Source: Pseudomonas sp. MYb327
GTDB lineage: Bacteria; Pseudomonadota; Gammaproteobacteria; Pseudomonadales; Pseudomonadaceae
Length of the DNA stretch: 64,000 nt
NCBI RefSeq assembly: GCF_040438925.1
Contig: NZ_CP159258.1
Coordinates: 1,564,001 to 1,628,000, forward strand
Reading direction: 5' to 3'
Under the pieces are notes generated by a model that was given only the letters and a program-made list of their open reading frames with translations, was not told the origin of the DNA and did no database searches. The position numbers and the translations under genes were made by a program. Below are positions 8,384 through 17,860 of this stretch, piece by piece. The first letter of the stretch is position 1. Every line of letters begins with the position of its first letter.

Positions 8384-8503
8384 CTATCTCAAATAGTAAT
8401 AACTGACTCAAAAATTTAGCGCTGATGAGATGAGTGTCGACGCTATTGGGAGCGAGTACAAGGCGGAATCGAGGTATTGAAGGTTCACCAAAAACGATCA
8501 AGT

Positions 8504-8531
8504 GAATCACAAATGATCATTTTACATGATC
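8504..8531 (+). promoter_or_regulatory. Conserved 28-bp operator-like element, copy 1
   Basis: Lies between the divergent LysR gene and the symporter operon, ending 113 bases before the GTG at 8645. The sequence contains a perfect inverted repeat at 8513-8533, ATGATCAT-TTTAC-ATGATCAT. The 28 bases match the element at 14633-14660 at 26 positions. The symmetry and place suit a LysR-type binding site. Confidence 0.65.
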
Positions 8532-8644
8532 ATGTGCCAGGCATAGGTTGAAGGGGCACAGATACCGCAGCCAGTGGCGGATCGAGTCTTCGAATCTGAG
8601 GCTGTGGAACAACAATAACGTAACCACTGCTACACGGAGTCAAC

Positions 8645-8959
8645 GTGAACCATGCAACTGAATCGTCCAGAATTCGGAACCACCCCCGTTATAAGGATTT
8701 GGTCTCAAGGCAGCGAAGATTCGTCGCCAGCCTGACCGCCGCCACCCTTGTCCCGTATTTCGCGTTCATCCTCATCGCTGCCTTTCACCCTCAGCTTCTG
8801 GCGACGAAGCTTTCCGCAAACAGCATCATCAACATCGGTTGGCCGCTGGGTCTGGTGTTCATTATCGGGGCCTGGTTGTTCACCGGGCTTTACATCCTTC
8901 GTGCCAACGGTGAGTTCGATGAGCTGACCGCAGAAATCCGCGCGGGGGCCATCGTATGA
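8645..8959 (+). CDS. DUF485 small membrane protein (YjcH-like)
   Basis: 104 residues with two membrane segments (about 32-52 and 62-82), the DUF485 family that accompanies ActP-type symporters. The GTG at 8645 has CGGAG six bases upstream. It overlaps the symporter gene by 4 bases (ATGA), as yjcH does with actP. In this family the protein is an accessory subunit of the sodium:solute symporter in the inner membrane. Confidence 0.9.
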   Translation: MNHATESSRIRNHPRYKDLVSRQRRFVASLTAATLVPYFAFILIAAFHPQLLATKLSANSIINIGWPLGLVFIIGAWLFTGLYILRANGEFDELTAEIRAGAIV

Positions 8960-16276: not shown

Positions 16277-16386
16277 TCATTGACGCTTTTGGGTTGGAGG
16301 GCGTGTAGGCGCGGGCTTGCACGCCAGCCATTTTCCCGGGGGGCGAACTCCTCGCTCCCAATTTTTTATCGCCAGGGTGAATTGCC

Positions 16387-16776
16387 ATGCCATTGCTCAA
16401 GTTCGACATCATCCAGGGCCGTAACGATGAACAACTGCAAACCCTGCTAGATGGGGCGCACCGGGCCATGGTCCAGGCGTTTGACGTTCCCGTCAGTGAT
16501 CGCTACCAAAGCGTCACGCAACACCGTCCGGGGGAACTGGTGCTGCACGACACGGGATTGGGCTACACACGCTCAGCCAATGTGGTGTTGCTGACGGTTA
16601 TTTCCCGACCGCGCTCAAGGGAGCAGAAGATCGCGTTTTATCGGTTGTTGGCCGAGCAACTGCGAGTCGACTGTGACCTGTCGCCCGATGACCTGATTGT
16701 CTCGCTGGTGGAAAACACCGATGCGGACTGGTCGTTCGGAGGTGGCCGGGCGCAATTCCTGACCGGGGAGCTTTAG
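16387..16776 (+). CDS. Tautomerase superfamily protein with malonate semialdehyde decarboxylase active site
   Basis: 129 residues, the same length as malonate semialdehyde decarboxylase (MSAD) of P. pavonaceae. Counting from the N-terminal proline exposed after Met removal, Pro1, Asp37 (in VSDRYQ), Arg73 and Arg75 (in ISRPR) all fall at the positions known to be catalytic in MSAD. MSAD turns malonate semialdehyde into acetaldehyde and CO2. The gene sits between mmsA and a class I nitronate monooxygenase whose product from propionate-3-nitronate is malonate semialdehyde, so the assignment is supported by both residues and context. Other Tautomerase_2 proteins share part of this set, so activity needs proof. 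Confidence 0.82.
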   Translation: MPLLKFDIIQGRNDEQLQTLLDGAHRAMVQAFDVPVSDRYQSVTQHRPGELVLHDTGLGYTRSANVVLLTVISRPRSREQKIAFYRLLAEQLRVDCDLSPDDLIVSLVENTDADWSFGGGRAQFLTGEL

Positions 16777-16810
16777 GTTTTTCATTCACTCATCACATTC
16801 AGGTGCTGCG

Positions 16811-17860
16811 ATGTCCACTCCATTGTTATCCCTTTTGAACATTGAATTGCCGATCATTCAGTCACCGATGGTGGGCGTCTCCACGCCCAAACTGGCGGCT
16901 GCGGTATCCAATGCTGGCGGGCTCGGGTCGATAGGGATCGGGGCGAGCACGGTCGAGCAGGCGCGCAACATGCTGCGAGAAACCGCTGCGCTGACGGACA
17001 AGCCGTTCAATGTGAATCTGTTCTGCCACCGACCCGCGGTGCAAGACCACGCGCGCGAGTCACAGTGGTTGACGGTGCTTGCTCCGTTTTTTGCCGAGTT
17101 CGATGCCGCTGCGCCGACATCGCTACGTGAGATTTACACCTCGTTCGTTGAAGACGAGGACATGCTGCAAATGCTGCTGGAAGAGAAGCCGGCGGTGGTC
17201 AGTTTCCATTTTGGCCTGCCGCCGCAACCGGCCGTCGATGCGCTCAAGGACGCCGGCATCGTCTTGCTGTGTTGCGTGACCAATCTGGCTGAGGCGCAGC
17301 AAGCGGAGAGCGCCGGTGTGCATGCGCTGGTGGCGCAAGGCTTCGAGGCCGGAGGGCATCGCGGGGTTTTCGACCCACAGCAAGACAGTGAGCTGGGCAC
17401 GTTGGCCCTGGTGCGGATGCTGGTCGACGCGTGCCCGCTCCCTGTTATTGCGGCAGGCGGCATCATGGATGGCGCAGGCATCAAGGCTGTGATGCAATTG
17501 GGCGCCAGTGCTGCGCAGTTGGGCACGGCGTTTATCCTGTGCCCTGAATCGTCCGCCAACGTGGCTTATCGCGAGGCCTTGAAAGGCCCGCGCGCCCACC
17601 AGACAAGCGTTACCAGTGTGATTTCAGGGCGCCCGGCCCGTGGCATGGTCAACCGCAACTTCACCTCACTGCAGGCCGATACCACTGCGTTGCCCGACTA
17701 TCCAATTGCCTACGACGCCAACAAAGCACTCAACGCGGCGGCAGCGGCCAAGGCCAACACGGCGTTCGCCGTGCAATGGGCCGGGCAGGGCGCACCGCTG
17801 GCACGGGAAATGCCGGCGGCAGCGTTGGTGAATTTGCTGGTGGCCCAAATGAAGTCCTGA
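16811..17860 (+). CDS. Nitronate monooxygenase, class I (propionate-3-nitronate type)
   Basis: 349-residue FMN enzyme. It carries the class I motifs in order: LPIIQSPMVGVSTPKLA at the first strand, PFNVNLFCH, SFHFGLP, AQGFEAGGHRG with the catalytic histidine, PVIAAGGIMDG and LGTAFILCPES. Class I enzymes oxidise propionate-3-nitronate to malonate semialdehyde plus nitrite/nitrate (known). AGGTG precedes the ATG. It probably shares a transcript with mmsA and the MSAD-like gene, making a short route from the nitronate to acetyl-CoA or acetaldehyde. Confidence 0.9.
   Translation: MSTPLLSLLNIELPIIQSPMVGVSTPKLAAAVSNAGGLGSIGIGASTVEQARNMLRETAALTDKPFNVNLFCHRPAVQDHARESQWLTVLAPFFAEFDAAAPTSLREIYTSFVEDEDMLQMLLEEKPAVVSFHFGLPPQPAVDALKDAGIVLLCCVTNLAEAQQAESAGVHALVAQGFEAGGHRGVFDPQQDSELGTLALVRMLVDACPLPVIAAGGIMDGAGIKAVMQLGASAAQLGTAFILCPESSANVAYREALKGPRAHQTSVTSVISGRPARGMVNRNFTSLQADTTALPDYPIAYDANKALNAAAAAKANTAFAVQWAGQGAPLAREMPAAALVNLLVAQMKS

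What the first reader, a model, noticed from the sequence alone, without database searches (positions are those of the whole stretch)
8384..17860. A complete candidate route for 3-nitropropionate/propionate-3-nitronate breakdown through malonate semialdehyde
A class I nitronate monooxygenase (16811-17860) is linked to an MSAD-like decarboxylase and MmsA, the two enzymes that can consume malonate semialdehyde, its product. A symporter, cytochrome b561, second NMO-family protein and MOSC protein lie next door. Class I NMO action on propionate-3-nitronate is established; the use of all these genes as one pathway is inference. Having both a decarboxylase and a CoA-acylating dehydrogenase for the same intermediate is unusual.
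Basis: partly seen in the sequence, partly recalled or inferred. Interest (0 to 1): 0.75.

Follow-up and report, generated by a model that had tools for sequence, protein, structure and literature searches.

The report
Nitropropionate breakdown cluster with shared switch
A soil-type Pseudomonas carries a set of neighbouring genes that very likely imports and burns the plant and fungal poison 3-nitropropionic acid; the same parts recur together in other bacteria, and two copies of one DNA control site tie the two halves of the set together.

Summary
In detail: a class I nitronate monooxygenase (NMO), a malonate semialdehyde decarboxylase (MSAD) and MmsA lie where described, beside a DUF485/ActP-type symporter, cytochrome b561, a second NMO-family protein, two LysR genes and a MOSC protein. 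(1) MSAD and NMO-family genes lie together in at least six gene orders, in Gamma-, Beta- and Alphaproteobacteria and one Peribacillus; a Methylobacterium nodulans plasmid has LysR, two NMOs, MSAD, DUF485 and ActP. (2) A 15-bp dyad occurs exactly twice in the 6.15-Mb genome, before the symporter–b561–NMO genes and before mmsA–MSAD–NMO. Of 199 sampled Pseudomonas genomes the exact site occurs in 7, the same 7 that carry this second NMO. (3) Either MmsA or MSAD can be missing while the other stays with the NMO, as expected for two outlets of one intermediate. The claim that having both is unusual fails: MSAD also lies beside an IolA-like gene in inositol operons. Substrate, induction, regulator binding and the second NMO's role are unproven. 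Likely function: 3-nitropropionate uptake and oxidation to malonate semialdehyde and nitrite. New variant of a known kind.

The parts
5009..6259 (+). MFS_4 (YbfB/YjiJ-type) transporter; probable outer member of the block
   Evidence: Pfam MFS_4 E 8e-81; 87-90% relatives in the same order in L173, L174, L175; the same family sits next to class I NMO genes in other loci
6238..7491 (+). second MFS transporter (start codon not settled, family not scanned); conserved neighbour, role unknown
   Evidence: tblastn span 6238-7488; 84-88% in L173-L175, 87% in L167
7475..8383 (-). LysR1, LysR-type regulator; optional
   Evidence: Pfam HTH_1 and LysR_substrate; not found at L048 or at the box-bearing set of G044 (L172)
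8506..8531 (+). box 1: LysR-type operator candidate, ATCACAAATGATCATTTTACATGATC
   Evidence: one of exactly two matches in the genome; core starts 129 bp before DUF485
8645..8959 (+). DUF485 small membrane protein, partner of the symporter
   Evidence: Pfam DUF485 E 4.4e-29
8956..10629 (+). sodium:solute symporter, ActP-like; likely importer of the substrate carboxylate
   Evidence: NCBIfam PRK09395 854 bits over cut-off 750, but below the cut-off of the ActP equivalog TIGR02711 (764 against 1099); ActP homologue at 57% in the M. nodulans NMO-MSAD cluster
10662..11243 (+). cytochrome b561
   Evidence: Pfam Ni_hydr_CYTB E 6.6e-16; no PDB relative at E 1e-3
11247..12251 (+). NMO_B: second NMO-family flavoprotein, not class I
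   Evidence: Pfam NMO E 7.5e-54; best PDB matches are FabK/NMO generic, E 7e-39; in 7 of 199 Pseudomonas genomes at E <= 1e-80
12287..13189 (-). LysR2, probable regulator that reads both boxes
   Evidence: Pfam; 77% identical copy in Alcaligenes L056, which has two one-mismatch boxes and no LysR1 match; but not seen within 10 kb of the box in L049
13292..13969 (+). MOSC-domain protein, YiiM-like
   Evidence: Pfam MOSC E 5.9e-32; PDB YiiM 5yhi E 2.1e-34; a MOSC gene directly follows a class I NMO on a Paraburkholderia plasmid
14635..14660 (+). box 2: LysR-type operator candidate, ATCACTAATCATCATTTTACATGATC
   Evidence: second of exactly two matches in the genome; core starts 114 bp before mmsA
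14759..16276 (+). MmsA, CoA-acylating (methyl)malonate-semialdehyde dehydrogenase
   Evidence: TIGR01722 690.5 bits; PDB 9q0d E 5e-249
16299..16369 (+). two hairpins, the second followed by a T-run: partial terminator or attenuator before MSAD
   Evidence: terminator-like site 16339-16359; aligned in 14 Pseudomonas loci with a consensus fold
16387..16776 (+). malonate semialdehyde decarboxylase (MSAD), tautomerase superfamily
   Evidence: 2aag E 1e-57; Pro1, Asp37, Arg73, Arg75 equivalents all present
16811..17860 (+). NMO_A: class I nitronate monooxygenase (propionate-3-nitronate type)
   Evidence: 4q4k E 5.3e-130; 61% identity and 7 of 7 checked active-site positions kept

Best explanation
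The cluster is a LysR-controlled system for using, and so detoxifying, 3-nitropropionate (3-NPA). The ActP-type symporter with DUF485 imports the carboxylate. In the cell 3-NPA is in equilibrium with propionate-3-nitronate, which NMO_A oxidises to malonate semialdehyde with release of nitrite. MmsA turns malonate semialdehyde into acetyl-CoA and CO2, MSAD turns it into acetaldehyde and CO2; they are two outlets for one aldehyde. b561 and MOSC may deal with reactive side products, and NMO_B is a second nitronate-type flavoenzyme of unknown substrate. LysR2 most likely senses the substrate or nitronate and switches on both gene groups through two copies of the same box. Shown here: gene content, conservation, repeated co-location in different orders, box rarity and distribution. 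Inferred: substrate, import, co-transcription, regulator-box binding, the roles of NMO_B, b561 and MOSC.
For: Family assignment. In 199 Pseudomonas genomes, 9 carry MSAD at >=56% identity and 8 of the 9 have a class I NMO directly beside it, while 31 of 199 have a class I NMO at >=55% (hypergeometric P 1.2e-6 without phylogeny). In the genome-contig scan, 23 of 80 MSAD loci have an NMO-family gene within 6 kb: 13 of 13 in the window's own clade and 10 of 67 elsewhere, against about 1.4% expected from the NMO gene density of this genome; in the 6-10 kb zone 2 of the 67 have one. Different gene orders. LysR, two NMOs, MSAD, DUF485 and ActP together on the M. nodulans plasmid. Flavohemoglobin near 6 of 32 class I NMO genes in Pseudomonas (five of the six checked by Pfam), matching its induction by nitropropionate in Pantoea (PMC11585277, passage). 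Exact box in 7 of 199 genomes, the same 7 that hold NMO_B, and one-mismatch boxes before both units in Alcaligenes. mmsA absent or reduced to a piece in 4 of 13 loci with MSAD-NMO_A kept; MSAD absent in G128 with mmsA-NMO_A kept.
Against: No activity, transcript or growth data. 23 of 31 class I NMO genomes in the sample have no MSAD beside the NMO, so class I NMO alone does not imply this route. 57 of 80 MSAD loci have no NMO-family gene within 6 kb. G044 keeps the symporter-b561-NMO_B-LysR2-MOSC-mmsA set and both boxes with no class I NMO at >=55% and no MSAD at >=56%, so that set may have a substrate of its own. L049 has the box but no LysR2 within the 10 kb held on either side. A terminator-like hairpin stands between mmsA and MSAD. 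pnoA was silent on nitropropionate in Pseudomonas sp. Nvir and unchanged in Pantoea sp. Nvir. The window clade may have inherited its box and NMO_B together, so the 7-of-7 match is not seven independent events.
Confidence: 0.75

Rival explanations
1. Two pathways side by side: the symporter-b561-NMO_B-LysR2-MOSC-mmsA set uses a different substrate (another nitro compound or a C3 acid that gives malonate or methylmalonate semialdehyde), and the MSAD-NMO_A pair is a later addition for propionate-3-nitronate that came under the same switch.
For: G044 has the first set with both boxes and no MSAD or class I NMO at the thresholds used. In L049 the mmsA-MSAD-NMO_A unit stands without the first set in the 20-kb stretch held, and in G002 and G167 the two halves lie on different contigs. 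NMO_B is not class I.
Against: Both units share one box, found twice per genome in exactly the 7 genomes with NMO_B. Alcaligenes L056 has b561-NMO_B facing the MSAD unit, with a one-mismatch box on each side. Clusters with an NMO_B relative and an MSAD share a listed contig length in several cases (9120, 9569, 165149 and 258897 bases), which suggests but does not prove the same contigs.
Confidence: 0.25
2. Malonate semialdehyde comes from another source (beta-alanine or uracil breakdown, inositol, 3-chloroacrylate or propiolate), and the NMO genes are incidental.
For: MSAD relatives do sit in inositol operons and in a uracil-degradation cluster on a Kozakia plasmid. The family's best-known member takes part in 1,3-dichloropropene degradation (PMC10606566, passage).
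Against: None of the ten cluster proteins scanned belongs to those upstream steps or is a second tautomerase such as CaaD. NMO-family genes and MSAD co-locate in at least six gene orders.
Confidence: 0.08
3. The tautomerase-fold protein speeds the slow nitro-to-nitronate conversion of 3-NPA, feeding NMO_A, instead of or besides decarboxylating malonate semialdehyde.
For: It belongs to a superfamily with a catalytic N-terminal proline (PMC5818174, passages); NMO needs the nitronate form (recalled). Its gene lies 34 bp before NMO_A.
Against: All four MSAD catalytic residues are kept and identity to the characterised enzyme is 70.5%. MSAD relatives also sit in inositol and uracil gene sets, which involve no nitro compound.
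Confidence: 0.05

Closest known systems
3-nitropropionate degradation by P3N monooxygenase (Pseudomonas sp. JS189 pnoA; Nishino et al. 2010, not held, known here through PMC9552603 and recall)
   Same: P3N-oxidising NMO, semialdehyde intermediate, conversion to acetyl-CoA, regulator nearby
   Different: MSAD as a second outlet, the ActP/DUF485 symporter, b561-NMO_B, and two gene groups joined by one box; whether the JS189 operon has any of these could not be read here
P. aeruginosa nmoR-nmoA (PA4203-PA4202; Vercammen et al. 2015, not held; title seen in a reference list)
   Same: Class I NMO at 61% identity to the solved chain 4q4k (that 4q4k is PA4202 is recalled), LysR control
   Different: Recalled as a small detoxification unit; no MSAD, MmsA or ActP partner recalled, and not checked here
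P. pavonaceae 170 MSAD of the 1,3-dichloropropene pathway (2aag; the source strain of 2aag is recalled)
   Same: Same enzyme family, 70.5% identity, falls in the same 36-row clade (support 96/76, below the tool's starred level), of which 22 rows are NMO-linked
   Different: Here malonate semialdehyde would come from a nitronate; no chloroacrylate dehalogenase among the cluster proteins scanned
Pseudomonas sp. Nvir nitropropionate route (pnmR; PMC9552603, sections 7 and 12 read, other passages)
   Same: 3-oxopropanoate (malonate semialdehyde) intermediate, (methyl)malonate-semialdehyde dehydrogenase and flavohemoprotein in the proposed route
   Different: Uses PNMR of another flavoprotein family; its pnoA was not expressed

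Membership tests
Class I nitronate monooxygenase | High similarity to the solved class I enzyme 4q4k over full length | tested here: met
   E 5.3e-130; 61.4% identity over a 345-residue stretch
Class I nitronate monooxygenase | Active-site positions Tyr109, His133, His183, Tyr254, Tyr299, Tyr303, Lys307 (named from recall) | tested here: met
   7 of 7 kept in the window protein
Class I nitronate monooxygenase | Oxidation of propionate-3-nitronate | not testable with these tools
   needs enzyme assay
Class I nitronate monooxygenase (for NMO_B, 11247-12251) | Closest to the class I enzyme among solved relatives | tested here: not met
   best PDB matches are FabK/NMO generic at 137.5 bits; 4q4k and its sibling entries at 104-108 bits
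MSAD | Catalytic Pro1, Asp37, Arg73, Arg75 (PMC11641302, introduction passage) | tested here: met
   All four present in the window protein and invariant in 15 of 15 rows. In 88 wider rows Asp37 and Arg75 are kept in 88, Arg73 in 73; the exceptions include one NMO-linked row, Peribacillus L076
MSAD | Decarboxylation of malonate semialdehyde | not testable with these tools
   needs enzyme assay
MmsA / CoA-acylating (methyl)malonate-semialdehyde dehydrogenase | Scores over the curated TIGR01722 cut-off | tested here: met
   690.5 bits against 448.5
ActP cation/acetate symporter | Scores over curated cut-offs | tested here: inconclusive
   over the subfamily cut-off PRK09395 (854 against 750), under those of PRK12488 (845 against 850) and the ActP equivalog TIGR02711 (764 against 1099)
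1,3-dichloropropene / chloroacrylate pathway | CaaD or cis-CaaD tautomerase beside MSAD | tested here: not met
   no other tautomerase among the ten cluster proteins scanned
3-NPA catabolic operon of the JS189 type | P3N-type NMO with a regulator nearby and an enzyme for malonate semialdehyde | tested here: met
3-NPA catabolic operon of the JS189 type | Growth on 3-NPA or induction by it | not testable with these tools
   needs culture
LysR-type operator | Dyad with T-N11-A core before the regulated genes (recalled) | tested here: inconclusive
   ATCAT-N8-ATGAT at box 2 and a one-mismatch form at box 1; position and conservation fit; binding not tested

The most novel reading that the evidence does not exclude
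MSAD, a family best known as a decarboxylase from degraders of the synthetic fumigant 1,3-dichloropropene, has its natural job in pathways that make malonate semialdehyde, above all 3-nitropropionate breakdown. The fumigant pathway then took its last enzyme from a nitropropionate cluster. The window's cluster is a two-part regulon of that kind under one LysR switch, with b561-NMO_B as a second, uncharacterised nitronate-oxidising unit.
Probability: 0.45. Interest if true: 0.75.

Novelty: new variant of a known kind. Interest (0 to 1): 0.6.

Why it matters
3-Nitropropionate poisons mitochondria of livestock and people, and few bacterial gene sets for its use are defined. A cluster with importer, two outlets for the aldehyde and a two-copy control site gives a concrete genome marker and an immediately testable regulon. 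It also gives MSAD a natural setting, which bears on how a pathway for a man-made fumigant was assembled, and it opens the question of what the b561-coupled second NMO does.

Tried and rejected
Rejected: MSAD context as chance. LysR1 as the common regulator: it is not found at L048 and L172, and Alcaligenes L056 has two boxes with no LysR1 match. The box as part of a dispersed repeat: only two copies at <=1 mismatch in the genome. The hairpin pair as a repeat or a known RNA: one copy in the genome and no Rfam match at E<=1 in 16200-16900. A 26-base box consensus in 20 loci outside the box-bearing set: 19 of 20 had no match at <=8 mismatches; L062 had one at 7 (its own shuffles reached 10-11, but those of AT-richer L076 reached 7). 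So the box does not explain co-location elsewhere. Literature: no held paper has both 'malonate semialdehyde decarboxylase' and 'nitronate monooxygenase'; passages of the two papers with 'malonate semialdehyde' and 'nitronate' concern other matters. This covers open-licence papers only; the two key papers are not held. Cytochrome b561 gave no PDB relative. Not run: structure prediction, fold search.

Limits: the genome-contig scan kept 80 of 102 relatives, so 22 weaker ones were not examined. Some named loci are the same strains as G-handles (contig lengths and positions agree: L041/G088, L042/G167, L044/G002, L045/G131), so those counts overlap. The P values take no account of phylogeny. ORF tables are mechanical and contain spurious frames. 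G167's NMO_A contig is only 3.5 kb, so its neighbourhood is partly unseen. Of 238 plasmid records with an MSAD relative, 10 were opened, 8 of them annotated; one of the 8 (M. nodulans) had an NMO beside it. Of 64 plasmid records with a class I NMO (E<=1e-60), 8 were opened for the NMO, and the M. nodulans record had been opened before; an MSAD relative is adjacent in 2 of these 9.

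Full report
Observation. The window is G000:C1:1564001-1628000 of a 6.15-Mb genome; its nearest relatives are Pseudomonas. Upstream lie DUF485 8645-8959, an ActP-like symporter 8956-10629, cytochrome b561 10662-11243, NMO_B 11247-12251, LysR2 12287-13189 (minus) and MOSC 13292-13969, with LysR1 7475-8383 (minus) facing away. Three relatives keep two MFS genes further out, so the conserved block may run from about 5009 to 17860.

Enzymes. MSAD matches the solved enzyme 2aag (E 1e-57; 70.5% identity). 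The four residues given for MSAD in PMC11641302 (introduction passage), Pro1, Asp37, Arg73 and Arg75, are present and invariant in the 15 rows of A1. NMO_A is 61% identical to the class I enzyme 4q4k and keeps 7 of 7 active-site positions that I recalled for that class. MmsA scores 690.5 bits against a cut-off of 448.5. The next MmsA-like protein of the genome is 49% identical and lies elsewhere. NMO_B is not class I: its best solved relatives are FabK-type at E 7e-39.

Does MSAD go with NMO? In the same 199 Pseudomonas genomes, MSAD at 56% identity or more occurs in 9 and class I NMO at 55% or more in 31 (32 places); 8 of the 9 have the two genes side by side, and G182 does not. Conversely 23 of the 31 NMO genomes lack MSAD beside the NMO. 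In the wider scan (80 loci kept of 102), an NMO-family gene lies within 6 kb of MSAD in 23 of 80: 13 of 13 of the window's Pseudomonas clade and 10 of 67 others, with about 1.4% expected from the NMO gene density of this genome. In the zone 6-10 kb away, 2 of the 67 have one.

The orders differ. (1) mmsA-MSAD-NMO in the window clade. (2) NMO-MSAD, with flavohemoglobin and/or MFS_4 before it in G115, G094 and Sphingomonas L095, and without in G164. (3) NMO facing LysR-MFS_4-MSAD in Janthinobacterium, Massilia and Paracidovorax. (4) MSAD-MFS_4-NMO in Peribacillus, where the NMO is only 37% identical to NMO_A. (5) Another NMO type, MSAD and an ActP-like symporter in Variovorax and Cupriavidus; the Methylobacterium nodulans plasmid extends this to LysR, NMO (66% to the Variovorax one), MSAD (59%), DUF485 (32%), ActP (57%) and a class I NMO (60%). 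(6) b561-NMO_B facing MSAD in Alcaligenes. On a Sphingomonas plasmid, hmpA, a class I NMO (59%) and an MSAD relative (50%) lie between two copies of one IS110 transposase. Repeated assembly of the same parts is the strongest argument for one function.

Accessory genes. Flavohemoglobin is within 4 kb of 6 of 32 class I NMO genes in Pseudomonas and an MFS_4 transporter of 9 of 32 (some checked by Pfam). A catalase-like gene lies just before MSAD in 7 of the 80 loci: L057, L058, L060 (a shorter match), L064, L065, L067 and L090 (L058, L065 and L090 checked by Pfam). Flavohemoprotein and catalase-peroxidase rise on nitropropionate in Pantoea, while pnoA there did not change (PMC11585277, passage). 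The window cluster has no flavohemoglobin; one lies elsewhere in the genome.

One regulon. ATCATTTTACATGAT occurs exactly twice in the genome with up to one mismatch, and the backward control not at all (0.07 expected from window base composition). A 26-base version with up to three mismatches also gives exactly these two. One copy starts 129 bp before DUF485, the other 114 bp before mmsA. Across 199 Pseudomonas genomes the exact 15-mer occurs 12 times, in 7 genomes, the same 7 that carry NMO_B; each of the 7 has two copies at up to one mismatch. Twenty other genomes have a single one-mismatch match. Where mmsA is gone (L042, L044) the box stands 135 bp before MSAD. In Alcaligenes L056 a one-mismatch copy precedes the unit with the globin remnant and MSAD, and another precedes b561-NMO_B, beside a 77% LysR2 and without a LysR1 match. 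LysR2 is therefore the likely reader of the box. Against this, L049 has the box but no LysR2 in the 10 kb held on each side; its genome was not searched for LysR2. Binding is not shown.

Two outlets. Among 13 window-clade loci, 9 have full-length mmsA, 2 have pieces (L040, L046) and 2 none (L042, L044), all 13 with MSAD and NMO_A. G128 has mmsA-NMO_A without MSAD. G002 and G167, which lack mmsA here, have a 79% relative elsewhere. This fits two alternative consumers of one intermediate. The pair is not unusual: MSAD lies directly beside an IolA-like gene in Oceanobacillus L094, with IolB, a PfkB kinase and a DeoR regulator, with the same arrangement by similarity in L099 and L107. MSAD also sits in a uracil-degradation cluster on a Kozakia plasmid. 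As recalled, inositol and uracil breakdown also make malonate semialdehyde, so MSAD appears to follow that intermediate across three pathways.

Hairpins. Two hairpins with a T-run lie before MSAD in the 14 loci compared, including the four without full-length mmsA. Single sequences break some consensus pairs, L048 has a longer second hairpin, and the T-run is interrupted in L042, L044 and L048. The stretch has one copy in the genome. It may be a partial terminator that lowers MSAD-NMO_A relative to MmsA; this is inference.

Origin of MSAD. In a tree of 88 MSAD rows the enzyme 2aag falls in a 36-row clade (support 96/76, below the tool's starred level) in which 22 rows are NMO-linked, 6 catalase-linked and 8 neither; its exact place is unresolved. 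This makes recruitment from a nitronate cluster possible, not shown.

Against. There is no biochemical or expression evidence; Nvir's pnoA was silent on nitropropionate (PMC9552603, transcriptome section). G044 has the symporter-NMO_B-mmsA half with both boxes but no class I NMO or MSAD at the thresholds used, so that half may have its own substrate. NMO_B, b561 and MOSC roles are guesses. Nishino 2010 and Vercammen 2015 could not be read, so part of this may be in print.

Verdict. A probable 3-nitropropionate catabolic regulon: the pathway type is known, while the MSAD outlet, the symporter, the NMO_B unit and the two-box control make it a new variant as far as the held sources show.

Noticed in passing
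window 14026-14375 (between MOSC and mmsA): Part of the 789-bp intergenic stretch is a repeat with longer copies (76-88% identity) at three other spots in two regions of the genome (671935; 1234070 and 1234555); it holds a partial TwoAYGGAY RNA match on the minus strand (14202-14266) and an edge with many short copies.
   Followed up: partly
L194 (Sphingomonas sp. AAP5 plasmid p213), 960-6901: hmpA, a class I NMO and an MSAD relative (50%) lie between two copies of the same IS110 transposase: a possible mobile cassette for nitronate breakdown.
   Followed up: partly
L094, L099, L107 (Oceanobacillus), L098 (Vagococcus): MSAD-like gene inside or beside inositol (iol) operons, near an IolA-like gene, IolB and a DeoR-type regulator; Pfam scans were run on L094 and one L098 gene.
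   Followed up: partly
L190 (Kozakia baliensis plasmid pKB14400_3), 404-7139: MSAD-like gene inside a uracil-degradation cluster with PreA, a Zn-dependent hydrolase and dihydropyrimidinase.
   Followed up: no
L056 (Alcaligenes faecalis), 9608-9991: A 128-residue frame before MSAD matches the first 157 residues of a flavohemoglobin with a 35-residue gap (39% identity) and no Pfam hit: probably a remnant of an Hmp-MSAD arrangement.
   Followed up: partly
G125, G039, G010, G160, G112, G035, G124, G153 (Pseudomonas genomes): A one-mismatch form of the box, ATCATTTTTCATGAT, lies about 2.5 kb upstream of the common 43-46% NMO paralogue in these eight genomes (coordinates); not known whether it is in a coding region.
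   Followed up: no
L193 and L192 (Sinorhizobium numidicum and Rhizobium leguminosarum plasmids): Class I NMO beside a second NMO, LysR, a molybdopterin oxidoreductase and a cytochrome b gene.
   Followed up: no
L132 (G128), 13988-14947: An IS110-type transposase sits between LysR2 and NMO_B in this relative of the cluster.
   Followed up: no
window 18529-18613 (-): A tRNA gene lies about 0.7 kb downstream of NMO_A.
   Followed up: no
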